Source: Arthrobacter sp. (GTDB taxonomy: Bacteria; Actinomycetota; Actinomycetes; Actinomycetales; Micrococcaceae). From it: a DNA stretch of 64,000 nt. Shown here piece after piece: positions 6,111-51,575 of the stretch. The translations under genes were made by a program, and so were the position numbers. Within the stretch, counting starts at the first letter, position 1. Each line of letters begins with the position of its first letter. The stretch spans positions 1 to 64,000 of the forward strand of contig JAPLAM010000017.1 in the NCBI GenBank assembly GCA_026393275.1, read 5' to 3'. The notes under the pieces are model-generated. The model was not told the DNA's origin. It did no database searches and saw nothing but the letters and a program-made list of their open reading frames with translations.

Positions 6111-6764
6111 ATGGTCCAACAGTTGATGGCCTTTGCGCTGACCTGCGTCGTCGTAGTCGTCGTCCCCGGCCCCGATTTTGCGCTCGTGCTGAAGAACGCC
6201 CACCGCGGATCCGGGTCGGCGGCAACAACGGCGGCCGGGATCATGGTCGGCAACACGATCCTTGCCCTTCTCGCCGTGCTCGGCGTCACGGCACTCTTAG
6301 GGGCCTCCGAAATTCTTGGCACCGTGATCAGGATCGCTGGTGCCGCCTACTTGCTCTTTCTGGGGATCAGCGCCCTTCGGGAGGCGTTCGGACGGCCCCG
6401 GAGCCAGCCCGCGGCGTCCGAACCCCCCGCGGCGTCCGAACCCAAGGTGCGGCTGGGCGGAGGCTCCCCCTTCCTGCAAGGGATGGTGAGCAACCTGCTC
6501 AACCCCAAGGTCGCCGTCTTCTATCTGTCTCTTTTCCCGCAGTTCAACCTCGGTCCGCTTCCTCCTTTGGAACAGCACGCTTTGATGGCCGGCATCTTCC
6601 TGCTCACCGCCCTGGCGTGGTACATCCTGCTTGTGCAGGCGCTCAAGAAGGTTTCCGCGGCGCTGGCCCGTCCGCGCGTGAAGCAGATCGTCACGGGTGG
6701 ATCCGGTACCGTCCTGGTCGGTGTGGGCGGGACAATCCTGACGAAATCCCTGATGTCCACGTAG
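6111..6764 (+). CDS. LysE/RhtB family exporter
   Basis: A 217-residue inner-membrane protein with about six hydrophobic segments. The N-terminal helix carries the family signature PGPDFALVLKNA (about residues 19-30), and a later block reads GMVSNLLNPKVAVFYLSLFPQF, trimmed here to its key part NLLNPKVAVFYL. LysE/RhtB proteins export amino acids such as lysine, arginine, homoserine or threonine, or related metabolites. A short Pro/Ala/Ser-rich stretch with the repeated PAASEP motif lies in the cytoplasmic loop at about residues 100-120. No regulator of the LysG type is adjacent. The exported substrate is unknown. Confidence 0.88.
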   Translation: MVQQLMAFALTCVVVVVVPGPDFALVLKNAHRGSGSAATTAAGIMVGNTILALLAVLGVTALLGASEILGTVIRIAGAAYLLFLGISALREAFGRPRSQPAASEPPAASEPKVRLGGGSPFLQGMVSNLLNPKVAVFYLSLFPQFNLGPLPPLEQHALMAGIFLLTALAWYILLVQALKKVSAALARPRVKQIVTGGSGTVLVGVGGTILTKSLMST

Positions 6765-6898
6765 CGATGCCCTGAACGGCGGTGTCCAGCGGCCGGGATT
6801 CCTGCCGCAGGATTCTGCCGCCACCCGGCGCGGATCTTGATGAATCCTTGACGCCGCCCTCCCCCGCCATGGCCCGACAGGGATGGAAGAATGGCTGC

Positions 6899-18604: not shown

Positions 18605-18667
18605 ACTTTACCAATGGTTATGGCGTGTGACACATTGAGGGAAATCCATCCCTGACAGGAGTCAACG

Positions 18668-37522: not shown

Positions 37523-37590
37523 GGGACTGCCCCGGGTTTGCTTGACTCCTGACTTGTGAGGATTCGGTCCTTGCAGCAAGGATGTTCAAC

Positions 37591-37893
37591 ATGCCTAAGC
37601 CTTTCCCCGCTGAGTTCCGCCGTGACGTGGTCGCCGTGGCGCGGAAGCACGAAGCCCCGATCTCCCAGATCGCTAAAGACTTCGGGATTTCCGAAGCGAC
37701 CCTGCACAACTGGCTGAAGAAGGCCGACATCGAGGAGGGCGCCCGTCCCGGTGTGACGGAGAAGGAAGCCGCCGAGCTCAGGGATGCCAGGAAGCGGATC
37801 CGGCTGCTCGAGCAGGAGAACGAAATCCTGCGCCGGGCAGCGGCGTTCTTCGCCCGGGAGCTGCCCCAAAATGAAGTTCCCGCTGGTCCTTGA
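37591..37893 (+). CDS. IS3-family transposase, OrfA (helix-turn-helix subunit)
   Basis: A 100-residue protein beginning MPKPFPAEFRRDVV, with the helix-turn-helix IAKDFGISEATLHNWLKKAD (about 25-44) and a C-terminal leucine-zipper-like helix (RLLEQENEILRRAAAFF) typical of IS3 OrfA. The ATG at 37591 has AAGGA 8 bp upstream; an ATG three codons earlier is also possible. Its TGA overlaps the TTG start of orfB (37890-37893). In IS3 elements OrfA and an OrfAB fusion made by -1 frameshifting together carry out transposition. Confidence 0.92.
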   Translation: MPKPFPAEFRRDVVAVARKHEAPISQIAKDFGISEATLHNWLKKADIEEGARPGVTEKEAAELRDARKRIRLLEQENEILRRAAAFFARELPQNEVPAGP

Positions 37894-38738
37894 CCAAGAC
37901 GTGCGACGGGATTCCCGTCGCGGTGGCCTGCCGGGTGCTGGGTTTCTCCAAACAGGCCTTCTACGCGTGGAAGGCCGCGCCGGTCACGGAGCGTGACTGG
38001 TCTGATGCGCACCTGATCAACGCGGCCCTGGATGTCCACCGGGACGATCCGGCGTTCGGGTACCGGTTCATCGCCGACGAGCTCGAAGACCAGGGTTTCA
38101 GCGCCGGGGAGAACCGGGTCGCCCGGCTGTGCAGCAGCCAGCAGATCTGGTCCGTGTTCGCCAAAAAGCGCGGTCTGACCCGCAAAGCCGGCCCGCCGGT
38201 GCACGATGACCACGTCCGCCGGGACTTCACCGCGACGGCACCTGATCAGCTGTGGCTGACGGACATCACCGAGCACCGGACCGATGAGGGCAAGCTCTAC
38301 CTGTGCGCCATCAAAGACGTCTACTCCAACCGGATCGTGGGCTACTCCATCGACTCCCGAATGCAGGCCTCGCTGGCCGTCTCGGCCCTCCACAACGCGA
38401 TAGCACTCCGGGAGCCGGCGGGAACAACCGTGGTGCACAGTGACCGCGGTTCGCAATTCCGCTCCAACGCCTTCGTCAGGACGCTGAAGGGCAACGGGCT
38501 GAAAGGATCGATGGGGCGGGTCGGCGCGTGTGCCGACAACGCCGCCATGGAGTCGTTCTTCTCACTCCTGCAAAACAATGTGCTGGACAGCCAGCGATGG
38601 TCCACCAGGGCGCATCTGCGCCTGGCCATCGTGACGTGGATCGAGAAAACCTACCATCGGAAACGCCGTCAACGGCGGCTCGGTCGGCTAACGCCGGTCG
38701 AGTTTGAGATACTCAATACCGGCCTCAAAGCCGCCTAG
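37890..38738 (+). CDS. IS3-family transposase, OrfB (DDE catalytic subunit)
   Basis: A 282-residue DDE integrase-fold protein starting from TTG at 37890. Catalytic residues are visible as LTDITEH (first Asp), VHSDRGSQF (second Asp) and AAMESFFS (Glu), in the rve-domain order. An N-terminal helix-turn-helix_21-like region (HRDDPAFGYRFIADEL) precedes it. The C-terminus reads YHRKRRQRRLGRLTPVEFE as expected. No internal stop is visible, so the element may still be active. Confidence 0.93.
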   Translation: MTKTCDGIPVAVACRVLGFSKQAFYAWKAAPVTERDWSDAHLINAALDVHRDDPAFGYRFIADELEDQGFSAGENRVARLCSSQQIWSVFAKKRGLTRKAGPPVHDDHVRRDFTATAPDQLWLTDITEHRTDEGKLYLCAIKDVYSNRIVGYSIDSRMQASLAVSALHNAIALREPAGTTVVHSDRGSQFRSNAFVRTLKGNGLKGSMGRVGACADNAAMESFFSLLQNNVLDSQRWSTRAHLRLAIVTWIEKTYHRKRRQRRLGRLTPVEFEILNTGLKAA

Positions 38739-39142: not shown

Positions 39143-39427
39143 ATGACTGACGCGGTGGACGTGGAACTGCTGGTGGAAAAAACCGAGGGCTTCTCCCCCG
39201 CAGACATCGAGTACGCCGCCCGCAGCGCCCTCCCAGCGCGCCCTTGAGAAGGCTGTGTACGACGACGGCGGGCTGGCCTCTGGAGGGCAGCTTTCCGTCC
39301 GCGAGGCGGCCCCGAACGGCCCCGCCACCCAGGACTACATCGACGCGATCGCCGAAACTCGCACCACCGTCAGCGAAGGAGTCCACCAGGACTTCCTCGA
39401 AGACATCGACGCCCTGGGCCGCGTCTA
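39143..39427 (+). pseudogene. AAA-ATPase C-terminal fragment, frameshifted
   Basis: The first part reads VEKTEGFSPADIEYAAR, the lid region of Cdc48/FtsH-like AAA ATPases. About 39230 the frame shifts by one and continues as RALEKAVYDDGG, then IAETRTTVSEGVHQDFLEDI to a TAG at 39425-39427. The N-terminal ATPase core is missing. The ATG at 39143 is probably accidental. This is a decayed remnant next to the transposon insertion. Confidence 0.7.
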
Positions 39428-39523
39428 GACAGGATCGTCCAGCCATAAAAGCGCTGGGAAAGCTCGATATAGGAAGGGAAGCGCCTTTGGCACCTTGGCT
39501 TCGTCCAGTTGTAGCACACCCCA

Positions 39524-39528
39524 GCCTG
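39524..39528. repeat. left copy of the transposon target duplication (GCCTG)
   Basis: GCCTG directly precedes the left inverted repeat and is repeated exactly at 50921-50925 directly after the right inverted repeat. A 5-bp duplication is what Tn402/Tn5053-family transposition makes. Confidence 0.9.
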
Positions 39529-39685
39529 TGTCGTTTTCAGAACTCGCATGCACCACTTCATGCGGAAGTATGGCCCGGGTGCACAGGACTGTTGACATCC
39601 GTTTGTCAGAAGTCACCTGCACTGTTGGCATTTCCATCAGAAGTCGCCTGCACTAGCCTGAATCATGGTCAACAGTCGTCTGCAC
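39529..39685 (+). repeat. left terminal inverted repeat and three TniA-site-like repeats
   Basis: After the 25-bp terminal repeat come three 19-bp direct repeats with the shape TCAGAAGTC-CCTGCAC: 39604-39622, 39635-39653 (both nearly identical) and 39667-39685 (more diverged, GGTCAACAGTCGTCTGCAC). In Tn402-family elements TniA binds the terminal repeat and such 19-bp repeats to form the synaptic complex. No gene lies between the end and tniA. Confidence 0.85.
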
Positions 39686-39699
39686 CGTCGGCGCCAGTC

Positions 39700-41373
39700 A
39701 TGACATCGGATGACCCCCAGATCTTGGAACGGGGTCTGGTGGGCATGTCGGATGAGGCGTGGGAGCGCCTGCGCCGGCAGGACGAGGTCATTGCACCTTT
39801 GGCGGCCATGGTCACGGTCACCCACGGGGCGGCGGACAGCGCGGCCGAAGAGTTGGGATTGTCGAGACGGCAGGTCTACACCCTGATCGGCCGGCGCCGA
39901 AAGGGCACCGGTCTGCTGACGGACCTGGCCCCGGGCCGGTCCGCCGGCGGCCGGGGAGGCGGGCGCCTGCCGGAGCCTGTGGAGGCCGTAATTCGTGAAG
40001 TCATCCGGAAGACTTACCTGACGAAGCAAAAGCCGTCCTTGGCGGTTGTGCATCGCCAAATTGTGCGCGAATGCAAGACGCTGGGGTTGGCCGCGCCGGC
40101 AAGGAATACTGTCGCCCACCGGATCGAGGCGCTGCATCCGGTGGAAGTCAGGCGCAGGCGTGAGGGCAGCGAGGCCGCCCGGGCCTTGCAGTCGGCCGGC
40201 GGAAAGGTTCCGGACATCGTGGCCCCGTTGGACCAGGTCCAGATCGACCACACCGTGATTGACCTGATCATCGTCGATGACCGGGACCGGCAGCCCATCG
40301 GCCGGCCCTACCTGACGGTTGCCATCGATGTTTATAGCCGGTGCCTGCTGGGAATGGTCGTGACCCTGGAGGCACCGTCTGCGGTGTCGGTGGGCCTGTG
40401 TATTGCGCACATGGCCTGCGACAAGCGGCCGTGGCTGGAAGCCCTGGGCGTGGACGCGGCGTGGCCGATGAGCGGCAAGCCCAAGGCGTTGTTCCTGGAC
40501 AACGCTGCGGAGTTCAAGAGCGAGGCGTTGCGCCGCGGTTGCGAGCAGCACGGGATCAAACTCAGCTACCGGCCACTTGGGCGCCCGCACTACGGCGGCA
40601 TCGTGGAGCGGATCGTCGGCACGGTGATGCAGCGGGTCCATGAACTGCCCGGGACAACCTTCTCTAACCCGGGACAGCGGGGCGGTTACGATGCCGACAG
40701 AATGGCCGCCCTGACGTTGACGGAGCTGGAACGCTGGCTGGCCTTAGCGGTCGCCGGCTACCACGGCAGTATTCACGGATCCCTGAACCAGACACCCGCC
40801 GGGCGCTGGGGAGAGGGCGTGAGAGAGTTCGGCGCGCAGCCTGTTGTTGCGCACCCCGCAGCGTTTCTCATCGATTTCCTGCCGGTCATCCGGCGCCGAA
40901 TCACCCGCACCGGTTTCGTCATCGACCATGTCCATTACTTCGCGAACGTGCTCAAGCCATGGATCGCGCGGCGGGACGGGGAGGAAACGTTCATCATCCG
41001 GCGGGACCCGCGGGACATCAGCAGGGTCTGGGTGCTGGAACCGGAAGGGACGGCCTATGCGGAAGTCCCGTACCGCACGGTTTCTTACCCGGCGGTGACG
41101 TTGTGGGAACACCGGCAGGCGCTGGCGCGGCTCCGTCAGCAGGGACATGACCAGGTCAACGAGGAAGCATTGTTCCGCATGGTTGATCAGATGCGTGAGA
41201 TCACTTCAACGGCGCAACGGGCAACCCGCAGATCACGCCGGGAGCTGCAGCGGCGGCGCCACCTCCAGGCCTCCGGACCCGTGAAGAACCCGACGGCCCC
41301 ACCTGATGAAATGCTCCCACCCACGAATGATGTGGCGCCAGCCCGTCCTTTTGACGAGGTCGAGCAGTGGTGA
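39700..41373 (+). CDS. tniA: Tn402-type transposase TniA
   Basis: A 557-residue DDE transposase, the size of Tn402/Tn5053 TniA. An N-terminal helix-turn-helix (LGLSRRQVYTLIGRRRKG) is followed by the rve-fold catalytic core with Asp183 (VQIDHT), Asp267 (LFLDNAAEF) and Glu303 (GGIVERIVGT), with 35 residues between the second Asp and Glu. A beta-barrel and basic C-terminal tail follow, the latter expected to contact TniB. The open frame extends far upstream through the terminal repeats, but ATG 39700 lies right after the last TniA site and matches the family start. tniB overlaps the end by 7 nt. Confidence 0.95.
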   Translation: MTSDDPQILERGLVGMSDEAWERLRRQDEVIAPLAAMVTVTHGAADSAAEELGLSRRQVYTLIGRRRKGTGLLTDLAPGRSAGGRGGGRLPEPVEAVIREVIRKTYLTKQKPSLAVVHRQIVRECKTLGLAAPARNTVAHRIEALHPVEVRRRREGSEAARALQSAGGKVPDIVAPLDQVQIDHTVIDLIIVDDRDRQPIGRPYLTVAIDVYSRCLLGMVVTLEAPSAVSVGLCIAHMACDKRPWLEALGVDAAWPMSGKPKALFLDNAAEFKSEALRRGCEQHGIKLSYRPLGRPHYGGIVERIVGTVMQRVHELPGTTFSNPGQRGGYDADRMAALTLTELERWLALAVAGYHGSIHGSLNQTPAGRWGEGVREFGAQPVVAHPAAFLIDFLPVIRRRITRTGFVIDHVHYFANVLKPWIARRDGEETFIIRRDPRDISRVWVLEPEGTAYAEVPYRTVSYPAVTLWEHRQALARLRQQGHDQVNEEALFRMVDQMREITSTAQRATRRSRRELQRRRHLQASGPVKNPTAPPDEMLPPTNDVAPARPFDEVEQW

Positions 41374-42284
41374 ATATCGATGACTACCCGCCGCCGGATC
41401 TCTCCCATCTCCAGCCCTGGGCCCAAGCCATGGCTCGACTGCCGGCGGAGGAACGGATCCGGCGCATCCGGGCGGACCGCTGGATCGGCTACCCCTTGGC
41501 GGTCCAGACGCTCACCAGGCTCGAAACACTCTATGACTGGCCCGGCAAACAGCGCATGCCCAACCTTCTGCTGATCGGACCGACCAACAACGGCAAGTCC
41601 ATGATCATCGAACGGTTCCGCCGGCAGCACCCGGCACACTCCACCGCGGATCAGGAACACATTCCCGTCCTGTGTGTCCAGATGCCCTCCGAACCGTCCA
41701 TCCCGCGGTTCTACACGGCCGTCCTCGCCGCGCTCGGCGCGCCCACGGGACCGCGCCGGCGCGTAGCTGACCTGGAACAGCTCACCCTCGCCGTGCTGCG
41801 CCGCGTCGGTGTGCGGATCCTGGTGATTGACGAACTGCACAATGTGCTGGCCGGCCGCGCCGATGTCCGGCGCGAATTCCTGAACCTGCTGCGCTTCCTG
41901 GGAAACGAGCTGCGGATCCCGCTGGTGGGGGTCGGGACCCGGGAGGCCTATCTCGCCGTCCGCTCCGATGACCAGCTCGAAAACCGGTTTGAGCCCATGA
42001 CCCTGCCCCTGTGGGAGGCCAACGCAGACCTGTCGTCCCTGCTGGCCAGCTTCGGCTCCTCCTTCCCGCTGCGCACTCGCTCGAATCTGGCGACCGATGA
42101 CATGGCCCGCTACCTCCTGACCCGCAGCGAGGGCACCATCGGGGAGCTCACCTCGCTCCTGACCGAAGCCGCAGTAGCCGCCGTGGACAGCGGCGAAGAA
42201 TCCATCAACCACCGGACGCTGACCCTGGCCGAATACGACGGTCCCAGCGTGCGGCGCCGGAAGTTCGAACGCGAACTCAGATGA
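41367..42284 (+). CDS. tniB: Tn402-type transposition ATPase TniB
   Basis: A 305-residue AAA+ ATPase. Walker A is GPTNNGKS (about 70-77) and Walker B is ILVIDELHN (about 150-158). It is homologous to TnsC-like target-selection ATPases, which polymerise on DNA and bring TniA to the target. The start is GTG at 41367 inside the end of tniA, and the stop overlaps the tniQ ATG by 4 nt, so all three proteins are made in coupled fashion. Length is normal. Confidence 0.95.
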   Translation: MVNIDDYPPPDLSHLQPWAQAMARLPAEERIRRIRADRWIGYPLAVQTLTRLETLYDWPGKQRMPNLLLIGPTNNGKSMIIERFRRQHPAHSTADQEHIPVLCVQMPSEPSIPRFYTAVLAALGAPTGPRRRVADLEQLTLAVLRRVGVRILVIDELHNVLAGRADVRREFLNLLRFLGNELRIPLVGVGTREAYLAVRSDDQLENRFEPMTLPLWEANADLSSLLASFGSSFPLRTRSNLATDDMARYLLTRSEGTIGELTSLLTEAAVAAVDSGEESINHRTLTLAEYDGPSVRRRKFERELR

Positions 42285-43483
42285 GGCCGCCGGAACGCTG
42301 GCCTCTGCACCCGGCCCCTGCAGAAACGGAATCGTTGTCCTCCTGGCTCCGGCGGATCGCAGCCAGCTACGGGATGTACTCCTACGAGCTGCTCGAACAC
42401 GGACTCGGCCACCGCGAACTCAGCGACCCCGAGCTGGATCTGAACCCTCCGATGCACCTGCTCGAAGAGCTCGCCAAGCGCACCGGTCTTGACCAACACC
42501 GCGTAAACGCCATGACCATGGCCGGCTGGGTGCCATGGCTCTTCGACGGACTCGCCCCTGCCCCCGACGCCTACGAAACCTATGCGCACCAGCTCTCGGT
42601 GCTCCTGCCGCCCAAGCGGCGCATTATCTATACTCCGCGGAAGTGGTTGCCATGGCTCCCGGACTCCGGGGCGCGGCGGGGATGCCCGGACTGCCTGGAA
42701 TCCGGCCCGACGCTACTGCTCTTCTGGCAATTGCCGCTCATGGCCAGCTGCCCGGTACATGGGCGCCGGCTTGAAACCTACGAAGGACACCCTCCTGACT
42801 ACGTTTTGTGGAAAACCCCAGCCCATGGCGAGCGGGGGCTTCCGGAGTCGTTGTCCCTCATGGACCGGCGGACCTGGCAGGCGATAACCACCGGTTCCGT
42901 CAATCTGCCCCGGTATCCGGTTCACGCGGGCACCTGGTTCCGGCTGCTGCGGACCCTCCTGGACGAACTCACCACAGCCCAGGGACGATATGGCCGACAA
43001 CTGGACGACGTGCGTCGTGTCTGGGAACACTGCGGACACCCGTTCCGGGCCGGCCTGTATTCGTGGCAACCGTTCGAAACCCTCCATTGGCCGGTCCAGC
43101 AGCAGCTGCTCGAAGCAGCAGCCGCCGCAATGGAACTGATCGAAGCCGGCTCACTGGTTGCCTTGGGAACCTCCGCGCACCTCCTGCGCCCCGAACCGAA
43201 CCCCCGGATCGGCGACGGAACCCGGCCCGGCCCACTGACAGCAACCGCCGCCGTTCAAGAGAAGCCCACTCTCGATGAGCTCTGGAAACAAGCAACGGAC
43301 GCACTGGAAGTCTGCATCAAGGCAGCCAAAGAAGAGCCGGCCGTCGCGCAGCAGCTCTTCAACTTCGCACGCTACGGATGCCGGAGTGAAGAATCCGTGC
43401 GCGGTCTCCGGCAAACCTTCACCGAGCTTCAGATACCCCTCGACTTCCTGTCACACATTGATGAGCGGGGGCCCTTTGCCTGA
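42281..43483 (+). CDS. tniQ: transposition target-selection protein TniQ
   Basis: A 400-residue TniQ-domain protein. The N-terminal PPERWPLHPAPAETESLSSW region ends in the family hallmark ESLSSWLRRIAASYGM, and a treble-clef zinc knuckle is visible as RRGCPDCLESG followed by the LFWQLPLMASCPVHGRRL pattern (two Cys pairs, about 130-165). TniQ links TniB to the chosen target. It overlaps tniB by the ATGA quartet and is followed by the res region. Confidence 0.93.
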   Translation: MRPPERWPLHPAPAETESLSSWLRRIAASYGMYSYELLEHGLGHRELSDPELDLNPPMHLLEELAKRTGLDQHRVNAMTMAGWVPWLFDGLAPAPDAYETYAHQLSVLLPPKRRIIYTPRKWLPWLPDSGARRGCPDCLESGPTLLLFWQLPLMASCPVHGRRLETYEGHPPDYVLWKTPAHGERGLPESLSLMDRRTWQAITTGSVNLPRYPVHAGTWFRLLRTLLDELTTAQGRYGRQLDDVRRVWEHCGHPFRAGLYSWQPFETLHWPVQQQLLEAAAAAMELIEAGSLVALGTSAHLLRPEPNPRIGDGTRPGPLTATAAVQEKPTLDELWKQATDALEVCIKAAKEEPAVAQQLFNFARYGCRSEESVRGLRQTFTELQIPLDFLSHIDERGPFA

Positions 43484-43542
43484 CATAGAATAAATAACGG
43501 GTTTTGTGACATATTTCGATTCCGGTCGAATCCGGAATCACG

Positions 43543-43572
43543 TTGTCACTTAAACGAACGTATAAATGACAA
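43543..43572. other. candidate res subsite for the TniR recombinase
   Basis: TTGTCA at 43543 and its complement TGACAA ending at 43572 form a 30-bp interrupted inverted repeat with AT-rich centre, directly before tniR. The rest of the 101-bp tniQ-tniR gap holds further related pieces (TTTTGTGACATATTTCGATTCC and TTCCGGTCGAATCCGG palindromes around 43502-43535, both described in part). In Tn402-type elements res lies exactly here and is used to resolve cointegrates. Confidence 0.65.
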
Positions 43573-43584
43573 GGGGTCTGGACC

Positions 43585-44196
43585 ATGCTGGTCGGATACA
43601 TGCGGGTGTCCAAGGCGGACGGGTCGCAAAGCACTGATCTGCAGCGCGACGCGCTCCTGGTCGCGGGCGTCGACCCATTGAAACTTTACGAGGACCACTC
43701 CTCAGGCAAGAAGGACGACCGTCCTCAACTTGCAGCCTGCCTGAAGGGCATGAACGCCGGGGACACCCTTTTGGTGTGGAAGCTCGACCGGCTCGGCCGG
43801 GACCTGCGGCACCTGGTTAACATCGTCCATGACCTCACCGAACGCGGCATCGGGCTCAAGGTCCTCACCGGGCAGGGCGCTGCCATCGACACCACCACCG
43901 CCTCCGGAAAGCTCGTCTTCGGAATCTTCGCTGCCCTCGCCGAGTTCGAGCGCGAACTCATCTCCGAACGGACCATCGCAGGACTCGCCGCCGCCCGTGC
44001 CCGCGGCCGTAAGGGCGGCCGGCCCTACAAGATGACCCCCGCCAAACTCCGGCTCGCCATGGCCTCAATGGGAAAACTGGACACGAAAGTCAGCGAGCTC
44101 TGCACCGAACTCGGCATCACACGCCAAACCCTCTACCGACACGTCTCACCAACCGGCGAACTGCGCCCGGACGGGCAGAAGCTGCTGGCGCGCTAG
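43585..44196 (+). CDS. tniR: serine recombinase TniR (cointegrate resolvase)
   Basis: A 203-residue small serine recombinase. The catalytic Ser9 is in GYMRVSKADG, arginines in KLDRLGRDLRHL follow at about residue 67-78, and the long E-helix ERELISERTIAGLAAAR leads to a C-terminal helix-turn-helix (LCTELGITRQTLYRHV). It should resolve the cointegrate made by TniABQ at the res site just upstream. A good ribosome-binding site (AAGGGG) is 9 bp before the ATG. Confidence 0.95.
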   Translation: MLVGYMRVSKADGSQSTDLQRDALLVAGVDPLKLYEDHSSGKKDDRPQLAACLKGMNAGDTLLVWKLDRLGRDLRHLVNIVHDLTERGIGLKVLTGQGAAIDTTTASGKLVFGIFAALAEFERELISERTIAGLAAARARGRKGGRPYKMTPAKLRLAMASMGKLDTKVSELCTELGITRQTLYRHVSPTGELRPDGQKLLAR

Positions 44197-44441
44197 CGCA
44201 GGTGGACGTCAACACTTTTCCCTGGCAGTCCACAATGCGATCGCGCCGAATAGAACGATTGGAGCCCTAATACCCACCAAGGCGACCCAGCCCTGGGGGC
44301 CGTAAATTGCTAGGCGGCTCCGCCGCAGAAACCGCTGATGATCAACGAACGCTCGAACGGTCTTATTGGATAAACCCTCCACAGTACGTCTGCGGTTCGG
44401 CCGGCAGGTCTCACCGTCACCCCCGGCGGCATCCTCAGATA
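44197..44441. other. 245-bp gap between tniR and the Tn3-type segment
   Basis: No supported gene. On the minus strand an open frame ending at 44209 encodes a hydrophobic tail (VALVGIRAPIVLFGAIALW), but its N-terminal part is unstructured and there is no start with a ribosome-binding site. Just after tniR the string GCGCAGGTGGACGTC (44198-44212) resembles half of an inverted TniA site but too weakly to call. Confidence 0.4.
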
Positions 44442-44479
44442 GGGGCTCACAGGCTTGTGAAAAAGTGAAATATGCGACG

Positions 44480-44653
44480 CTAAGGTTTTGCCGGGCGTCG
44501 TAGTGGCCTGTATTTGGCGCGGGGCCAGATGTAGTCGCCGGTGAGGTTGATGTGTTCCCAGCCCAGCGGTGAAAGGAACCGCAGGAGGTCCGGGTCGATG
44601 TCACCGCTGTTGCTGGTCAGGGTGGCGACGGTGCGGTCGAGGTAGACCGATTG
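44480..44653 (-). pseudogene. Tn3-family transposase TnpA, C-terminal stump
   Basis: The 58 remaining codons read QSVYLDRTVATLTSNSG, then FLSPLGWEHINLTGDYIW to a stop, which is the conserved C-terminus of Tn3 transposases (LSPLGHEHIN-x-LG-Y). As usual in this family the stop codon overlaps the inner edge of the terminal inverted repeat. All catalytic regions are lost. Confidence 0.8.
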
Positions 44654-44987
44654 TGTCAACTTGATTGGAGCCCACCGAGACGGCCCGACTGGTACCCAGG
44701 TGCGGCCTTGATGCGGTCCAGAAAGCAGGGCCAAGGACGTTGCGACAGTCTTCCGTCGGGTGGCAGCTGCTCGTGGCGCTCAGCGATTAATTGGTAGGAG
44801 TTAGCGTGTAGCGAGAAAAGCGCTGGCGTAGACGGGCAGGAAGGCCGACCACAGCCCAGCCCCAGTCCTCGGAGGTTGGTTCAGTTTTTGCAGAAGCTGT
44901 GCCTGATGCCTCCGTGCTTAGCCGCGAGCGGTGTCCCGCCTTGGAACACCGCCCGCAGGCTTATCCGCTCAGTATGGTTCGCCCAGA

Positions 44988-45239
44988 CTAAGCCCTCGAC
45001 TTAGCCGACGCTCGCCGTGAGGCGATGGACAGGCTGATTCCGGCGGCAGCGGCTATTACCGCGCCGACGAAGGACCAAACAATCACTTCCATAGGCCAGG
45101 ACGGCCCTTGCGATGGATCAAGTCGGGAGGTGTTTATCCCAAACACTTGCGAGCCGATCCAGATGTAGGCAACCACAAGGAGCATGATTGCGCCTAACAC
45201 TCCGGCGACTATGAAAAGTACCTTCGCAGCCTTGGACAT
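44988..45239 (-). CDS. small two-helix membrane protein downstream of the DUF2599 gene
   Basis: An 83-residue protein with two transmembrane helices (about 7-30 and 50-71) separated by an extracellular loop of about 20 residues, and a basic tail RRASAKSRA that places the C-terminus in the cytoplasm. It begins 31 bp after the DUF2599 stop on the same strand. The pairing of a secreted protein with a small membrane protein is repeated in the RHS part of the same transposon. A protective (immunity) role is my inference; no family is recognised. Confidence 0.6.
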   Translation of the reverse strand: MSKAAKVLFIVAGVLGAIMLLVVAYIWIGSQVFGINTSRLDPSQGPSWPMEVIVWSFVGAVIAAAAGISLSIASRRASAKSRA

Positions 45240-45270
45240 TTTCGCAACTCCTGCTTACTCTTGATCCTGC

Positions 45271-46212
45271 TTAGGGGTTACAACGGTACGTCAGGTTCAA
45301 CTGGTCGCCCCAGTACATCCACGGTCGCCATGACTCGAGGTTGTAGGTGCCGGGTTCGAAGACATTGCCCACTACGTGACACAGGTATTGCTCCTGGATT
45401 GTACCCGTGAGGTTCCAACCAATTCGACCCAATTTGGTGCGCAACTCGTCCACGTGTGCGTTGTGGGTTGCGAATCCGTTGTAGAACCGCCCCCAGCCCG
45501 TTGGGTTGAGATTTACCACTCCTCCTTGTGAAGCGTAGGTGATCCACGGGAGTCCGTCGATCAGGTCCACGCCAGCCCAGGGGTCTGCCACCACCGGATA
45601 CTTGACGGTTGGGGAGGAATGGTCGACGACCTGTACGAGTTGCCGTCCCTGGACTTCGTAGTGAGTAGGCAGAGCGACGCCAGCCGCATCTTTTGCCCAT
45701 GGCTTGGCAAAGCCACCGAAGAACGTACCATCCGCTCTCGAGATCGCAACGCTTCCATCCTCATTCGGCTTCATCGCGGCTCCCGCGGGTATGTCGACTC
45801 GATACTGGTATCGGGAGGGCGCTGCCGACGATTCGATAATTGTGTGAATGGCGACGGAATTGTCGTCCTGTGGGATGGGGACCGTAGCTGAGCCGTTGCC
45901 ATTGTCGTAGGACACTACCCCGTTTCCAATGGGTCGCGCTGTCGCCGACTTCTCTGCAAAGGGAAGCCCGATCGAAAGGGACTGGCCCTTCTGGCCAGTT
46001 ATCTTCACAACACCCGACGAATCGGTCGGCACCTCCACCTTCTTATCGCGAATGCCCTGTTTGCCAAGGGACTGGACGTTTGGAGAAACAGCTGCAATAG
46101 CCCTAAGAGCGTTGTCGTCGGGAGCGGCGCCGGCCGGTCCGGCTTGCCCGAGCAACAGCGCGAAGCCTATGGCTCCAACGGTCAGTGACGTGATTTTCCT
46201 TCGTAATGTCAT
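45271..46212 (-). CDS. secreted DUF2599 domain protein
   Basis: A 313-residue exported protein. Residues 1-30 are a signal peptide (TLRRKITSLTVGAIGFALLL then AGPAGAAP cleavage region). A middle beta-rich domain (about 40-200) has repeated short strands, and the C-terminal 100 residues match the DUF2599 pattern: DPWAGVDLIDGLPWITY, NPTGWGRFYNG, QEQYLCHVVGNVFEPGTYNL and a final CNP with two conserved cysteines. The ATG at 46212 has GGGGGAA upstream; an upstream ATG lacks such a site. GC content is visibly lower than the chromosome. Function of DUF2599 is unknown. Confidence 0.75.
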   Translation of the reverse strand: MTLRRKITSLTVGAIGFALLLGQAGPAGAAPDDNALRAIAAVSPNVQSLGKQGIRDKKVEVPTDSSGVVKITGQKGQSLSIGLPFAEKSATARPIGNGVVSYDNGNGSATVPIPQDDNSVAIHTIIESSAAPSRYQYRVDIPAGAAMKPNEDGSVAISRADGTFFGGFAKPWAKDAAGVALPTHYEVQGRQLVQVVDHSSPTVKYPVVADPWAGVDLIDGLPWITYASQGGVVNLNPTGWGRFYNGFATHNAHVDELRTKLGRIGWNLTGTIQEQYLCHVVGNVFEPGTYNLESWRPWMYWGDQLNLTYRCNP

Positions 46213-46227
46213 AGTTCCCCCAATTGA

Positions 46228-46250
46228 ACTCGGCACCCCCTGTGCCGAGT
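46228..46250. promoter_or_regulatory. perfect palindrome in front of the DUF2599 gene
   Basis: ACTCGGCAC, a 5-nt spacer and its exact complement GTGCCGAGT lie 16-38 bp upstream of the DUF2599 start codon. The position suits an operator overlapping the transcription start or a leader hairpin that hides the ribosome-binding site. Confidence 0.5.
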
Positions 46251-46425
46251 CGAGTCACCATAACATGTTTGTTTGACGAGGACTTGTCACACCGAATGGC
46301 CGTCTCAGATCTGCTGGATTTCCGGTTCAGACGAGTCATTTTTAGGACCGGAATTCCTTCGCCGGAACTTGCAGTCCGCCTATTCTGGTTCGTCCTCAGC
46401 AAGTTCGTGACTTATTAGCGGTCTA

Positions 46426-46623
46426 TCAGTTCGATCTAAGGCTGTGTGCAAGTCGGTAGGAGTCTGTGCCGGTTTCGATGATAGTGCCGTTGAACGTGAG
46501 CAGGTCCACGCGCCCGTAGCGGAAGATAGTCTTAGGCAGCATCTTTTCGTCGGCGGCTTCGACGAGTTCGTTCACGGGAATCATTCTTTGGTGAAGTTCC
46601 GGGATCTCACCTGCCAAGCACAA
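46426..46623 (-). pseudogene. unidentified gene remnant inside the right Tn3-type repeat
   Basis: A 65-codon frame that reads AGEIPELHQRMIPVNELVEA and continues through FRYGRVDLLTFNGTIIETG to a stop. The amino-acid composition looks like a genuine globular protein rather than a shadow, and there is no plausible promoter or ribosome-binding site at its start. It is probably the end of a gene truncated when the Tn3-type segment shrank. I do not recognise the family. Confidence 0.4.
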
Positions 46624-46709
46624 ACTGTCCAGATTGCAAGTCGGTGGATGCCCATTTTTGCGGAAAACCGCGCTAGCGTCGGAAATTTAACTTTTTCACA
46701 AACCACCCC

Positions 46710-47067
46710 AGATAGCGGCCCTATCCGGAAAGCACTTCCGTTTGCAACTAGCACCACACTCCCTCCGGCAGGCTCTGGCCGGACTCGTGACCGGCGGCTG
46801 ACACTTCCCGGGGCCGGGGCATCTCAAGTGTCAATGCCGCTTCGAAAACACGGGAACCGTTCAGCCGGCCATCAACGGCGTCTTTACGCCCCCAACATGA
46901 GCGAGGGCCGTTAGCGCCGGATCCTGTTCCATTGTTCGTGACGGGCCGGATCCGAGAGAATCTTGGGCTGGGCCACGTGAAGCTGTAAAAGGCGTCAGCT
47001 TACTGCGCACGAGATGACACAGCAGGCGCCGCATCGCGCGTTTCAACTGCGCTTCCTCCTTAGTCAT
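46710..47067. other. 358-bp region between the Tn3-type segment and the RHS unit
   Basis: A minus-strand frame (47067-46861, 68 residues, starting MTKEEAQLKRAMRRLLCHL) begins one base after the stop of the small RHS-neighbour gene and could be a third cistron, with an amphipathic basic N-terminal helix. It has no family signature. The remaining 150 bp hold nothing recognisable. Confidence 0.3.
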
Positions 47068-47256
47068 CTACCCTTTTCGTAGGTAGCCCAGCACCATCGG
47101 CACTATGATGGCAACGCCCAGTATCACGGGAATTAGATGGATTACTGGCCCTGTCTGCGGAAGCATCATTCGCACTATGACGGCACAAACGACGCTAGCC
47201 AGGAATATTAGGCCTGTTGCAGCAGCTAACTTGCGAAGTCCTTGGGCTCGGGGCAT
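47068..47256 (-). CDS. small two-helix membrane protein downstream of RHS, candidate immunity protein
   Basis: A 62-residue protein, MPRAQGLRKLAAATGLIFLA at the start, with two transmembrane helices (about 11-31 and 37-57), a very short outer turn and a basic C-terminus. AAAGG lies 6 bp before the ATG at 47256; the longer open frame upstream overlaps the RHS gene and is discarded. It starts 46 bp after the RHS stop on the same strand. Small membrane proteins placed directly after polymorphic toxins with membrane-active ends are commonly immunity proteins; that role is inferred here. Confidence 0.6.
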   Translation of the reverse strand: MPRAQGLRKLAAATGLIFLASVVCAVIVRMMLPQTGPVIHLIPVILGVAIIVPMVLGYLRKG

Positions 47257-47302
47257 CTCGTACCTTTCAGTGCAGCGGAATCGTTCACGGATCAGCCTTG
47301 TT

Positions 47303-50300
47303 TCAGGTAATCGCGTTTCGAATGATCGGGCCCAACCCAGCGGTGAGACCGCCCAGGCAACTCGCGCCGATACTGGATGCAGAGGTGCTTGATCCGTCAA
47401 AGGCGTTCGCTGAACCAACGCCAACGGCAGCAGTTGTGCAACCTCCCACCGCCGTCCCTATTGCGATCCCACCCAAAGGTGAGGTGAACGGTGTGACGGC
47501 CACACCGACAATGATGCCAAAAGTAGCCCCCACGAGCGCACCGACCACTGCGCCGAATATGGTGCCGCCCTCGGACGCGAGTCCGGTGGAATCTGTTGCG
47601 TTGATGGGGTTACAGCCTGCGTAAAGGTACCTGTTGGCTTCCTGTCCGGAGGGGTCGGGTTGCGTGAAGCGGCCGCGGTAGGGGTTGTAGTAGCGGGCGC
47701 CGAATTTGATGCGGTTGCTGGCGGTGTCGTTGTAGCCGCCGGCGTAGGTCCAGGGGTTGGTGGCTGCCTGGGCGCCGGTGCTGGTGGTTTGGCCCCAGGA
47801 GTCGTAGGCGTAGGTCGCAGCCGGGGCCTGTGCGCTGTCGGTGAGCAGGATGGTCGAGCCGAGCCCGTCCATCGTGTAGTAGTAGCTGGCCCCGGTGCTG
47901 GTGCGCATGCTGATGAGGGTACCGCCCGGGTCCCGGATAAACGAGGTGCTGGCGCCGGCCGTGGTTTGGCGGCTGATGCCGAGGGAGCCGTTGAGGAACG
48001 CGGTGGCTCCGGCGGTGAGGCGTTCATCGTTCCGCGGCCCGCTGTAGGTGTAGTTGGCCGTCACTCCGCCGCTGGTGTTGGAGGTGAACTGGTCGAAGAC
48101 GTTGTAGGCCTGCGTGGTGGCCCCGGCGGCGGTGGTGTTGCCGTTGGAGTCGTAGGCGTACGTGGTCGCCCCGGACGGTGGTGCGGCGCAGGTGCCGGCG
48201 CTGGCTCCGGACCAGCAGAGCTGGTCGGCGGCGTTGTAGGCGTTGTAGACGTTGCCGGTGCCGGTCTTGGTGTCCAGGGTCCGGTTGCCGTTCTTGTCGT
48301 AGGCCCAGGTCTCGGTCGTGGCCCCGGTGATAGCGGAGGTGAGCCGGTTGACCGGGTCGTAGCCGTAGGTAGTGACAGCGCCTGCCTGGTCGGTGACGGT
48401 TTTGCGCAGTGCCCCGTCCTTGGTGCCGTTAGCGGTAAAGGTGTAGGCCCGTTTGGTCAGGACCGTGCCACCGGTGGTGGTCGCGGTGATGGACGTAGTC
48501 CTGCCGGCCCCGTCGTAGACGGTGGTGTTCTTCACCCCGTTGGGGTAGCTGGTCGTGGCGCGGCGGTCAGCGTTGTCGTAGCCGAAACCGGTGCACCGGG
48601 TGCTGTTCGGAAACACGGGTGTGGCCGGGCAAGACCCGCCGGGTTCGGCCAGGGTGACGAGCCGGTTCGCTGCGTCATAGCCGTAGGTCACGGTCCCGCC
48701 CGGGTCGGTGAAGCCGGTGACGTTCGACGCCGCATCATAGGTGACCGTGGTCGTGACCCCGCCGGTGGTTTTGGACTTGGGACGGTTCTGCGCGTCGTAG
48801 GTGAAGTCGGTGTTCCCGGTATCGTCCTGGCTCCGGGTCAGGTTCCCGCGGGTGTCGTAGGCGTAGGAGACGCACTTGCTGGCGCAGTTGACGCCCTTGT
48901 CGATCTGGATGAGCCGGTCATTGTCGTCGTAGTCGTACTGGGTGACCTGGCCCTTGCCGTCGGTGGAGGTGATGAGCCGGGAGGCGTCGTCGTACACGTT
49001 CGTCACAGCCCCCAGCGGGGCCGGGTAGGTGATTTTGGTCGGCATGCCCAGGGCGCCGTAGGTGTAGCTGGTGACGTTGCCGTTGCCGTCGGTGGACTTA
49101 CAGACCTGTCCCTTCTTCGCCCCGCAGCTGGACCCGGCTGCGTCGCCCTGGTAGTTCAGTTTCGGTGTCCCGCCGGCGCCTCCTCCTGCCCCGGGGGTGG
49201 TGGTCATCGACCGGTTGTTGGTGTTGGCGTCGTAGCTGTACCCGGTGGTCTGGTTCTCACTGTTCACCGAGGAGGTGGGCTGGTAGTTCGAGAGCGGGTT
49301 CCCGGTGTTGGACGGATACGCGAACGTCGTTTCGGCCCCGGCGGCCCCGCCGGCGGGGTTGGTGACCTTCGTCAGGGAGTTGTTCGCGTTGTACGCGTAG
49401 GTCGTGGAATTGCCCAGCCCGTTCAACGAGGTGAGCCGGTTGTCGTGGGCGTCGAAGGTCCCTTGGGTGGTGTGGCCGAGCGCGTCGCTGATCTTCGTGA
49501 CCTGGCCCGAAGAGTTGTACTCATAGCTCGTGGCGTGGTTCAGCGGATCCGTCCCCTTCGAGACGGTTGCGGACGGGTAGCTGTAGCCGTAGATGCTCTG
49601 GACCGGCTTGCCGGTGGCGTAGGTCGCCTGCGTGAGTTTTTTCGAGGTGCTGTCATAGCCCAGGGTGGTGACGGTACCGGCGTCGTCGGTGACGGTGGTG
49701 AGCCGGTTACTCGGGGCCCCGTAGCCGAAGGACATGACCTCCCCGGCGGCGTCGCTGATCTCGGACATCGCACCGCCCGGCCCGAAATACTCGAAATAGA
49801 TGTCCCGGGACAACGCATCATCGTGGATCTGCGAGGGCTGCTCCGGGTTGTTCGCATCGTTGTAGGAGAAGGTGACCGGCCGGCCGCCGATGGTGTCGTT
49901 GATCGTGGTGAGCCGCCCGGCGGCGTTGTAGGTGTAGGTGATCCTGTTCGGCGCCGTCGGGTTCTGATCATTCTGGTATGCGAGCCGGAACGTCGAGCCG
50001 GCGAGCTGGTATTCGTTGCTGAAGCCGGTGTCGTTGAAGCGGATCGTCACCGCCGTCGAGGAGAACGTGGTGATGGTCGCATTCAGGCCGCGGGGCATCG
50101 TCCACGCCCCGGCTCCTGCGGGAACGAACTTGTAAGCGCCGCCGTCCGGGGCGATGTAGGTGACCGAGTTATCGGTGCCGACCGTGACAGCAGATTCCGC
50201 GGTTCCCACCGACAGTGTGGGCCTGGCGTCGTTGAACGAGTTGTACCGCCAGCCGATGCCAAGGTCCACTCCGGCGCCTTTGACGTGCAGCAACTGACCG

Positions 50301-50632
50301 GCCAGAACCACGTTGCCGTTCGTCGGGTTCCACGAGACAGTCGTCCGGTCCGTGAGGTGCCGGGTAACCATCGATGCCGCGGACCGGTTACCCGACTTAC
50401 TCGCATCTGGCCCGGAGGCCGGTGGCAGCACCATCGGCGACATCCCCAGAGCGGGTAACGCGGCCGTCTGGCCCGTCCGGAAAGGGGCTCGATGCTCTAA
50501 CGAGGACGGTGCGCGGCCCGGCGGCTTCACCGTCGCCGGTGCGGCAACGGCCGCGCCCGCCGGCACAGTCACACCGCTGAGAACCACGGCGGAAAGAACA
50601 AGACCTGACAGAAGAGACCGTAAAGCAGCCAT
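47303..50632 (-). CDS. secreted RHS/YD-repeat protein with hydrophobic C-terminal domain
   Basis: A 1109-residue protein. A Sec signal peptide (about 1-31, VPAGAAVAAPA end) is followed by a beta-rich head (about 85-230) and a long array of YD repeats (about 230-960, units such as GRLTTINDT, SFGYGAPSNRLTTV, NRPKSKTTGG). The conserved RHS core end IKFGARYYNPYRGRFTQPDP, then NRYLYAGCNPINATDSTGL, ends at about residue 1021. The last 88 residues are a Gly/Ala-rich hydrophobic segment (FGAVVGALVGATFGIIVGVA) with glycine-zipper spacing. RHS proteins build a shell around a C-terminal toxin; here the tip looks membrane-active. A gene for a small membrane protein follows. It is the main cargo of the transposon. 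Confidence 0.88.
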   Translation of the reverse strand: MAALRSLLSGLVLSAVVLSGVTVPAGAAVAAPATVKPPGRAPSSLEHRAPFRTGQTAALPALGMSPMVLPPASGPDASKSGNRSAASMVTRHLTDRTTVSWNPTNGNVVLAGQLLHVKGAGVDLGIGWRYNSFNDARPTLSVGTAESAVTVGTDNSVTYIAPDGGAYKFVPAGAGAWTMPRGLNATITTFSSTAVTIRFNDTGFSNEYQLAGSTFRLAYQNDQNPTAPNRITYTYNAAGRLTTINDTIGGRPVTFSYNDANNPEQPSQIHDDALSRDIYFEYFGPGGAMSEISDAAGEVMSFGYGAPSNRLTTVTDDAGTVTTLGYDSTSKKLTQATYATGKPVQSIYGYSYPSATVSKGTDPLNHATSYEYNSSGQVTKISDALGHTTQGTFDAHDNRLTSLNGLGNSTTYAYNANNSLTKVTNPAGGAAGAETTFAYPSNTGNPLSNYQPTSSVNSENQTTGYSYDANTNNRSMTTTPGAGGGAGGTPKLNYQGDAAGSSCGAKKGQVCKSTDGNGNVTSYTYGALGMPTKITYPAPLGAVTNVYDDASRLITSTDGKGQVTQYDYDDNDRLIQIDKGVNCASKCVSYAYDTRGNLTRSQDDTGNTDFTYDAQNRPKSKTTGGVTTTVTYDAASNVTGFTDPGGTVTYGYDAANRLVTLAEPGGSCPATPVFPNSTRCTGFGYDNADRRATTSYPNGVKNTTVYDGAGRTTSITATTTGGTVLTKRAYTFTANGTKDGALRKTVTDQAGAVTTYGYDPVNRLTSAITGATTETWAYDKNGNRTLDTKTGTGNVYNAYNAADQLCWSGASAGTCAAPPSGATTYAYDSNGNTTAAGATTQAYNVFDQFTSNTSGGVTANYTYSGPRNDERLTAGATAFLNGSLGISRQTTAGASTSFIRDPGGTLISMRTSTGASYYYTMDGLGSTILLTDSAQAPAATYAYDSWGQTTSTGAQAATNPWTYAGGYNDTASNRIKFGARYYNPYRGRFTQPDPSGQEANRYLYAGCNPINATDSTGLASEGGTIFGAVVGALVGATFGIIVGVAVTPFTSPLGGIAIGTAVGGCTTAAVGVGSANAFDGSSTSASSIGASCLGGLTAGLGPIIRNAIT

Positions 50633-50652
50633 GCTGCGCCCCCAATATGATG

Positions 50653-50690
50653 TGCTCCCCAGTGAGCATCCTTGCGCTCCCCAGTGAGCA
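50653..50690. promoter_or_regulatory. two direct copies of a palindromic site upstream of the RHS gene
   Basis: TGCTCCCCAGTGAGCA (50653-50668, arms TGCTC/GAGCA) is repeated as GCTCCCCAGTGAGCA at 50676-50690, a 22-bp period or two helical turns. The pair lies 21-58 bp upstream of the RHS start codon, ideal for a dimer-of-dimers regulator controlling expression. No regulator gene in the element is an obvious candidate. Confidence 0.6.
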
Positions 50691-50872
50691 CAGGATGATC
50701 ATCAGCGACAACACTCTCAAATTGCAATACACGAACCCCAGAATTTTTCCAAACCAGTGAAAAACCCGGCCGTCCTGCTTCACCGGCGACCCCGCCGTCT
50801 CCTGATCGGGGCAGTGCGCGGCTGCGCGGCGATTGACTCCTCCCGACACCCGGAAGGGCCTCTCAACCCCTA

Positions 50873-50920
50873 GCGCAGAACACTTCTGACATTCAGTGCA
50901 GACGACTGCTGAAAATGACA
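50873..50920 (-). repeat. right terminal inverted repeat and TniA-site-like repeat
   Basis: Read inward from the right end, the 25-bp terminal repeat (50920-50896, TGTCATTTTCAGCAG at its tip) is followed by one 19-bp repeat TGTCAGAAGTGTTCTGCGC (50891-50873), the same type as the three copies at the left end. The asymmetry of three left copies and one right copy is ordinary for this family. Confidence 0.85.
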
Positions 50921-50925
50921 GCCTG
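50921..50925. repeat. right copy of the transposon target duplication (GCCTG)
   Basis: Exact copy of 39524-39528, abutting the right terminal repeat. It marks the insertion point of the transposon. Confidence 0.9.
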
Positions 50926-51038: not shown

Positions 51039-51177
51039 ATGGTTGGTCAGAGGATCGGGTAAGTGCGCGTCAGCGGCCTAGACTAGAACGAAAGACGCCA
51101 ACTCTATAGCGCGGCTCTGGACCGTTTTCATCGGGAAGATCTCCGGCCGGGACGCGAACCGCCCCGAGTTGACCGAA
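51039..51177 (+). pseudogene. serine resolvase, N-terminal remnant
   Basis: An ATG at 51039 with GTGGAGG before it starts MVGQRIG, and after small frame corrections the sequence continues YVRVSGLDQNE-RQL-SAALDR-FIGKISGRDANRPELTEL. This is the N-terminal catalytic half of a Tn3-type resolvase, including the RVS active-site serine. There are an in-frame stop in place of GlyTyr, another TAG after LeuAsp, and at least two one-base shifts; everything after PELTEL is missing. It is therefore a dead gene. Confidence 0.75.
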
Positions 51178-51192
51178 CTGCGCGGCGCACAC

Positions 51193-51217
51193 ATGGGTTC
51201 AAATCCCACCCTCACCG
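51193..51217 (+). tRNA. tRNA-Ser 3' end fragment (attachment-site remnant)
   Basis: ATGGGTTCAAATCCCAC is a T-arm with the GTTCAAAT loop, and CCTCACC plus G is the 3' acceptor strand and discriminator of a tRNA-Ser type. The 5' two thirds of the tRNA are absent; sequence before 51193 is unrelated. A strong terminator follows 9 bp later, as at a real tRNA gene end. Such stumps are left when an integrative element enters a tRNA gene. It is not functional. Confidence 0.65.
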
Positions 51218-51225
51218 CGATTGAG

Positions 51226-51269
51226 AAAGGCCCTACTTCCCTTGTAAACAAAGGGAAGTAGGGCCTTTT
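51226..51269. terminator. strong intrinsic terminator after the tRNA fragment
   Basis: AAAGGCCCTACTTCCCTT, a 7-nt loop and a near-perfect complement ending GGGCCTTTT form an 18-bp stem followed by a T run on +, and AAA on the other side, so it can work in both directions. It is probably the native terminator of the lost tRNA gene. Confidence 0.85.
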
Positions 51270-51575
51270 GCTTTGCCACGAAAGGGTCCAGCGGTAACGC
51301 AGCAGTAACAAAGCTCTCGTGCACATACTTCCCTCAGCACCGATGGACGCAAAGCGCGGTTTGAACTCGGCACGCTCGCCGAGGTGGCTGAGCTCCTCCT
51401 TGGCCCGGCAGGTCGACAGCGAGCCACCCGCAGCGCGTGTTGCGGGCGCCCAGTGCGGCGTGCATACGGGACGCCTGTTAGGTCTCGAACGTACACACCG
51501 CCAACCGATGCAATGGCACCTTTAGAATGGGGCGGCGCCTGAAAGGCGGTGCTGGTTTCTATCAAAGGGGGCGAT
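51270..51575. other. 306-bp region with no recognisable gene
   Basis: Short open frames on both strands lack ribosome-binding sites and family features. It probably holds the promoter of the downstream membrane-protein gene; no clear -35/-10 pair was found by eye. Confidence 0.4.

What the first reader, a model, noticed from the sequence alone, without database searches (positions are those of the whole stretch)
39524..50925. Complete Tn402/Tn5053-type transposon with exact GCCTG target duplication and unusual cargo
Seen directly: 25-bp inverted ends, three plus one 19-bp TniA-site-like repeats, coupled tniA-tniB-tniQ, a res-like site, tniR, and identical 5-bp flanks GCCTG. Established: this family normally carries mercury resistance or class 1 integrons. 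Here the cargo is a secreted RHS protein and a DUF2599 protein, each followed by a small membrane protein. A self-mobilising unit for contact or envelope-acting proteins in a Micrococcaceae genome would be a new use of this transposon class.
Basis: partly seen in the sequence, partly recalled or inferred. Interest (0 to 1): 0.93.

Follow-up and report, generated by a model that had tools for sequence, protein, structure and literature searches.

The report
Jumping gene carrying swappable bacterial toxins
A complete jumping gene of a known family, in a soil bacterium, carries next to its own moving machinery a large cage-type protein that likely poisons neighbouring bacteria, together with a likely antidote, and sister copies elsewhere carry the same kind of protein with unrelated, likely toxic, tips.

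Summary
Window 39529-50920 (11,392 bp) is a complete Tn402/Tn5053-type transposon: tniA-tniB-tniQ-res-tniR, imperfect 25-bp ends, six end repeats and a perfect GCCTG duplication. Uninterrupted relatives of the target exist on plasmids, in the res region of a serine resolvase, so this is a 'res hunter'; the resolvase beside the window's element is decayed. The RHS cargo is real and recurrent: 4 of 8 elements with a tni module about 85% identical or more (206 genus genomes) carry an RHS gene just inside a right end. Each has an unrelated 58-91-residue tip and a small two-helix membrane protein downstream. The RHS protein matches solved Rhs effectors. The four cores are not one clade, so RHS modules were captured or replaced more than once.

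One correction: the DUF2599 gene pair is not part of the Tn402 cargo proper. It sits in a nested 2,268-bp Tn3-type unit (44442-46709) with its own ends and an AGATA duplication. The DUF2599 protein is itself a secreted carrier with variable tips.

Best reading: a res-hunting transposon lineage that carries polymorphic toxin-immunity modules. Toxicity, immunity, delivery and present-day transposition are untested. New variant of a known kind.

The parts
39524..39528 (.). left copy of target duplication GCCTG
   Evidence: uninterrupted relatives
39529..39553 (+). left inverted end (25 bp, 20 of 25 matching the right end)
39537..39685 (+). four TniA-site-like repeats at 39537, 39606, 39637, 39669
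   Evidence: same offsets in L139 and L140
39700..41373 (+). tniA, DDE transposase (557 aa)
   Evidence: TnsB structures; 66-67% to plasmid TniA
41367..42284 (+). tniB, AAA ATPase
   Evidence: PF05621 E 4e-76
42281..43483 (+). tniQ
   Evidence: PF06527 E 3e-21
43484..43584 (+). res-like region with conserved GTCAC..TGACA inverted site
   Evidence: aligned in 8 elements
43585..44196 (+). tniR, serine resolvase
   Evidence: PF00239 E 5e-44
44437..44441 (.). AGATA duplication, left copy, of nested Tn3-type unit
44442..46709 (.). nested Tn3-type unit (2,268 bp) without an intact transposase gene
44480..44734 (-). remnant: last part of a Tn3 transposase
   Evidence: PF01526 profile 347-389 of 389
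44988..45239 (-). small protein after the DUF2599 gene, hydrophobic by eye, likely immunity
45271..46236 (-). secreted carrier (ends ..YPVVADP) with DUF2599 tip
46710..46714 (.). AGATA duplication, right copy
47068..47256 (-). 62-aa protein (start chosen by eye) with two hydrophobic peaks, likely immunity to the RHS tip
47303..50632 (-). RHS protein (1109 aa): cage 68-1020, variable tip from about 1019
50873..50912 (-). two TniA-site-like repeats at the right end
50896..50920 (-). right inverted end
50921..50925 (.). right copy of target duplication GCCTG
51040..51170 (+). decayed serine-resolvase gene whose res region was the likely target (end approximate)

Best explanation
This is a complete res-hunting transposon of the Tn402/Tn5053 family whose cargo is an RHS gene plus a small membrane-protein gene that likely act as a polymorphic toxin and its immunity protein, used against neighbouring bacteria. 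Shown by sequence: element, ends, duplication, target type, RHS cage homology, recurrence in sister elements with unrelated tips. Inferred: TniA/B/Q would place the unit in res regions of plasmids and other transposons, and TniR would resolve the cointegrate. The RHS protein would be exported by its Sec-type signal (seen by eye); its cage would hold and release the hydrophobic tip, which would insert into and depolarise the target membrane, while the 62-aa two-helix protein would block the tip in the producer. Recombination within conserved RHS core DNA would swap tip and immunity gene together. A nested Tn3-type unit adds a second likely toxin-immunity pair (secreted carrier with DUF2599 tip).
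For: Similarity to L002 and L003 starts and stops at the two ends. Uninterrupted targets with one duplication copy: window (L186, L187, 69-70%), L140 (343 bp on both sides, 93.6%), L139 (81.5%); L144, not an RHS carrier, likewise. RHS just inside a right end in 4 of 8 elements with tni about 85% identical or more. Rhs effector structures by sequence (best E 5e-25) and fold (first 12 hits E 2e-47 to 3e-43, Tse5 the twelfth; TM-scores to the query 0.26-0.46). 68 RHS proteins: last 100 core residues form 1 cluster, tips 31. All 6 pairs among the four transposon tips look like shuffles (21 to 239 of 300 reach the score); a partner picked for each from other RHS loci scores 0 of 300. RHS tree of 37 rows: one clade for the four rejected, AU p 1.4e-5.
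Against: No toxicity, immunity, export or transposition was tested. The tips are short and rich in small hydrophobic residues, so weak similarities, and the 26-member tip cluster that holds the window's own tip, may be compositional. Tip partners were picked by eye. Immunity-gene matching is mixed: L140-L175 0 of 500 and L143-L180 1 of 500, but the unpaired L140-L139 and L175-L180 also give 0 of 500, L139-L180 1 and L139-L143 3; the window's small protein matches none of five (56-437 of 500) and L184a only at 10 of 200; L176 showed no such ORF. 4 of the 8 closest elements showed no RHS, nor did the 5 wider family loci fetched. The RHS tip has pLDDT under 50. The uninterrupted-site matches reach only 20-46 bp left of the junction.
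Confidence: 0.72

Rival explanations
1. The transposon is real but the RHS gene is a passive passenger: an adhesin or cell-wall protein picked up by chance, with no toxin function.
For: No activity data; 4 of 8 close elements showed no RHS but transporters or enzymes by eye; the window RHS protein has no Pfam toxin domain.
Against: Sharp switch from conserved core to unrelated tips, a different small two-helix protein after each, tip relatives on other RHS loci including repeated partial RHS modules in G051, an RHS relative with a phospholipase-A2-like tip (P0232, PF09056 E 4.7e-4, below its cut-off), and RHS cores that are not one clade.
Confidence: 0.17
2. The RHS gene came in once with the first transposon of this lineage and only its tips diverged or were exchanged; no repeated capture. 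This is compatible with the toxin reading.
For: Same orientation and place next to a right end in all four; tni modules about 85-90% identical.
Against: RHS cores of the four are not one clade (AU p 1.4e-5) and L139/L143 are a longer type (1482 and 1405 aa against 1109 and 1118). Core recombination after one capture could mimic this.
Confidence: 0.3
3. The ends and duplication are chance and the island is a mosaic assembled by other elements.
For: IS3 and ISL3 copies and a nested Tn3-type unit lie in or near it; end-repeat score alone is only modestly above others.
Against: Similarity to L002 and L003 begins and ends exactly at the proposed ends; uninterrupted targets; conserved end repeats.
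Confidence: 0.02

Closest known systems
Tn5053/Tn402 res-hunter transposons (PMC7765201, passages seen)
   Same: tniABQ-res-tniR, 25-bp ends, insertion in res regions; here 5-bp duplication too
   Different: cargo here is an RHS toxin-type module in Actinomycetota; the passages seen deal with mercury resistance and class 1 integrons
CDI genes bcpAIOB on a ~210-kb IS2-like composite transposon of Burkholderia thailandensis (PMC6350997, abstract and outline seen)
   Same: polymorphic toxin-immunity genes carried by a mobile element
   Different: contact-dependent inhibition proteins on a huge IS-flanked composite element; here an Rhs/cage type on a compact tni transposon with res targeting
Rhs effectors of type VI secretion, e.g. 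Tse5 (PMC10684867, search listing only; structures)
   Same: YD-repeat cage, conserved border motif, C-terminal tip; Tse5 is called pore-forming
   Different: here an N-terminal Sec-type signal (by eye) and no type VI part among the 8 element proteins scanned
CDI ionophore toxins with polymorphic immunity proteins (PMC11630599, abstract and outline seen)
   Same: C-terminal toxins that act on the membrane potential, highly variable immunity
   Different: CdiA carrier and predicted five-helix tips; no direct comparison with the tips here was run

Membership tests
Tn402/Tn5053 family | gene order tniA-tniB-tniQ-res-tniR | tested here: met
   TniA-TniB-TniQ-recombinase order in H36
Tn402/Tn5053 family | about 25-bp inverted ends with multiple TniA-site-like repeats | tested here: met
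   20 of 25 bp, 4+2 repeats
Tn402/Tn5053 family | 5-bp target duplication | tested here: met
   also L002, L003, L028, L029, L032 (5 of 64 loci scanned), L143 and L144, L204
Tn402/Tn5053 family | targets res regions of resolvase genes | tested here: met
   window, L139, L140, L144 targets; Citricoccus match has no annotated gene
Tn402/Tn5053 family | transposition and TniR resolution take place | not testable with these tools
   needs a laboratory strain
Rhs/YD polymorphic toxins | YD-repeat cage with RHS-associated core border | tested here: met
   PF05593, TIGR03696; D1014 and G1017 invariant in 68 rows; fold
Rhs/YD polymorphic toxins | unrelated C-terminal tips on conserved cores | tested here: met
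Rhs/YD polymorphic toxins | cognate immunity gene directly downstream | tested here: inconclusive
   small two-helix ORF after all four transposon RHS genes, pairing tests mixed
Rhs/YD polymorphic toxins | tip is toxic, immunity protects, cage cuts itself | not testable with these tools
   no assay
Tn3 family (nested unit) | GGGG.. inverted ends and 5-bp duplication | tested here: met
   score 22, best other 15 among 144 positions
Tn3 family (nested unit) | intact own transposase (autonomous) | tested here: not met
   only the last 43 of 389 profile positions of PF01526 matched; could move only with a transposase from elsewhere
Class 1 integron | intI1 and cassette array | not tested
   no dedicated search; none of the 8 element proteins scanned is an integron integrase

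The most novel reading that the evidence does not exclude
One lineage of res-hunting transposons in Arthrobacter-like soil bacteria has become a vehicle for antibacterial weapons: it repeatedly picks up RHS toxin-immunity modules, swaps their tips with the genus-wide RHS pool, plugs them into plasmids and other transposons at resolvase sites, and can itself be loaded with a second weapon by a nested Tn3-type unit. Cell lineages that lose it would be killed by kin that keep it, so the weapon would also maintain the transposon.
Probability: 0.4. Interest if true: 0.8.

Novelty: new variant of a known kind. Interest (0 to 1): 0.62.

Why it matters
Rhs toxin loci differ between strains by tip swaps, but how whole modules travel is, as far as I recall, mostly unexplained. 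A compact, complete transposon with a known target preference, carrying such a module on a backbone about 90% identical with different tips, gives a directly testable vehicle. It also extends the cargo range of a family best known for mercury resistance and class 1 integrons. The DUF2599 carrier with variable tips is a possible second, undescribed toxin scaffold.

Tried and rejected
Chromosomal empty site in the genus: each flank searched alone in 150 genomes gave mostly short conserved pieces and no syntenic site in the listed rows (lists capped). The answer came from plasmids with joined flanks; the window match is 69-70%, and all these matches reach only 20-46 bp left of the junction.

Fold of the DUF2599 protein: confident model (pLDDT 88), no PDB match with E under 0.001 (best 1.2e-3, TM 0.25), so its mode of action stays open. 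Literature on DUF2599: 3 papers with one mention each, not opened. Tip homologue search: 1 hit among 1575 candidates, a near-identical RHS protein.

RHS within the 66 named TniA loci: 2 of 66 (L002, L003), many loci cut short by contig ends or the 10-kb flank. End/duplication scan: 64 of 66 loci (L062, L067 left out), only the best left end of each tried; exact 5-bp duplications in 5. Offset 4-bp matches in L007 and L025 were not counted. The genus search scored 2 candidates per genome, so further copies may be missed. A ninth close element, G523 (90%, another genus), lies on a contig cut at 10.3 kb (L190 is contained in L006) without an RHS hit. Of 16 matching family genomes outside the genus, 5 were fetched. 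L143: tni 84.5% by direct comparison, left end not alignable, outer right end at 18647 gives the duplication, RHS lies by an inner right end at 12059. L049/L050 are identical over the whole 21.6 kb fetched and were not used as evidence of transposition. No left Tn3 end was found in L049, so there the carrier pair is only adjacent to a Tn3 transposon.

Tip partners were picked by eye from the 13 tips; 10 of 78 pairs were tested, so 0 of 300 is not a blind test. The RHS tree used 37 chosen rows; the location of the P rows is unknown and some may also be transposon-borne.

Tip lengths were recounted (58-91).
Full report
What is there. Window 39529-50920 is bounded by inverted ends (20 of 25 bp alike) and a GCCTG copy on each side. 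It codes for TniA, TniB, TniQ and a serine resolvase TniR, with a conserved inverted site between tniQ and tniR that aligns in eight elements. TniA is 66-67% identical over its full length to TniA of plasmid records (40 of 4922 records listed); the record opened, Polaromonas pE3SP1, shows the order Mu-type transposase, TniB, TniQ, recombinase. That the enterobacterial hits are class 1 integron backbones is recalled, not checked.

Boundaries and mobility. Compared with flanks included, similarity to L002 (Pseudarthrobacter sulfonivorans RIT817) and L003 (Arthrobacter sp. AL12) starts exactly at 39529, covers the tni module at about 90%, resumes in the RHS core, and ends exactly at 50920 with a last block of 46 or 38 bp (elements alone). 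Both sisters have their own 5-bp duplications, TCGAA and TGCAT. Joined flanks with one duplication copy match uninterrupted plasmid DNA: window against Arthrobacter sp. D5-1 pAD51 (69%) and Citricoccus SGAir0253 (70%), L140 (same element as L002) against Kocuria rosea (343 bp on both sides, 93.6%), L139 (same as L003) against Arthrobacter ERGS1:01 (81.5%), and L144 against three plasmids at 88-90%. An annotated recombinase gene follows in each named record except Citricoccus, where no gene is listed. The matches reach 20-46 bp left of the junction and up to 300 bp right of it. The window's own neighbour is a decayed resolvase gene starting 115 bp from the duplication. So the element is a res hunter by family and by target.

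RHS cargo. The RHS gene starts 288 bp inside the right end and reads inwards (241-361 bp in the sisters). Among 206 genomes of the genus, eight places have a tni module reported as at least 85% identical over at least 4.2 kb (L143 is 84.5%). Four carry RHS next to a right end: window, G129, G205 and G192. The other four (G099, G003, G109, G176) showed no RHS in the 12.7-19.9 kb fetched, and none of the five further family loci fetched did.

Why toxin-like. The protein matches solved Rhs effectors by sequence and by fold, though with TM-scores to the query of only 0.26-0.46 for the first 12; the model is confident for residues 68-1020 and not for the tip. D1014 and G1017 at the border are invariant in 68 rows. 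Beyond it conservation collapses: 31 tip clusters against one core cluster, the window's tip sitting in the largest, 26-member, glycine-rich cluster. The four transposon tips resemble each other no more than shuffles (21 to 239 of 300), while each has a partner on another RHS locus of the genus (0 of 300 each, partners chosen by eye). G051 has a main RHS gene followed by three partial RHS modules with their own tips and small hydrophobic ORFs. Each transposon RHS gene is followed by a 56-65-aa protein with two hydrophobic peaks, starts chosen by eye. Pairing of tips and small proteins is suggestive for L140-L175 and L143-L180, but unpaired comparisons can score as well and the window pair is weak. 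Pore formation is inferred from hydrophobicity and from Tse5 and CDI ionophores (PMC10684867, listing; PMC11630599, abstract).

Repeated capture. A tree of 37 RHS cores rejects one clade for the four transposon RHS proteins (AU p 1.4e-5, quick tree), although their tni modules are about 85-90% identical. Either RHS genes entered this place more than once or their cores were replaced by recombination.

Nested unit. 44442-46709 has Tn3-type ends, an AGATA duplication and the last piece of a Tn3 transposase. It holds the DUF2599 gene and a small protein that is hydrophobic by eye. Of 101 genomes, 14 including the window's own carry relatives (24 places); these share a secreted stretch that ends in ..VADP and then differ: DUF2599-like in some, at least five other tip types by eye in others. 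In Lacisediminihabitans (L049) a carrier relative with another tip and a membrane-type protein lies beside a Tn3 transposase downstream of tniR. So a second scaffold with the same logic is likely, but its fold is unmatched.

Prior work. Searches for Rhs with Tn402 or transposon, Tn5053/Tn402 with TniA, contact-dependent systems on mobile elements, Rhs with Actinobacteria, and Tn402-like with Arthrobacter listed no title or abstract start with RHS cargo on this family; only open-licence papers are held, lists were cut at 10-20, and only three papers were opened. CDI genes on a composite transposon are known (PMC6350997, abstract), so mobile polymorphic toxins are not new in principle. Verdict: new variant of a known kind.

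Noticed in passing
window 45271-46236 and L150-L173: DUF2599 proteins belong to a wider set of secreted carriers ending in ..VADP with at least six tip types by eye; possibly an undescribed polymorphic toxin scaffold.
   Followed up: partly
L143 12059-18647 (reversed G192:C1): Extra segment between an inner right end next to RHS and an outer right end with the TCGAA duplication, with a kinase-like and another large gene by eye; plus an RHS core fragment at 6527-7198.
   Followed up: partly
window 46439-46576: Stretch similar (85%) to an IS21 helper istB gene inside the nested Tn3-type unit.
   Followed up: no
window 51191-51319: 143 of 150 genus genomes match the right flank somewhere, most listed rows in this stretch; it reads like a tRNA 3' end by eye, but ARAGORN finds no tRNA. 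Possibly an old attachment site.
   Followed up: partly
window 39149-39428: 150 of 150 genus genomes match the left flank somewhere, most listed rows in this stretch at 73-90%, so the insertion lies beside a fragment of a conserved gene.
   Followed up: no
window 37582-38738 and 53793-54893: IS3-family and ISL3-family transposase genes on either side of the element.
   Followed up: partly
L007 and L025: Ends show a 4-bp match shifted by one base instead of a 5-bp duplication.
   Followed up: no
P0232 residues 1432-1511: Distant RHS relative whose tip weakly matches prokaryotic phospholipase A2 (PF09056, E 4.7e-4, below cut-off).
   Followed up: no
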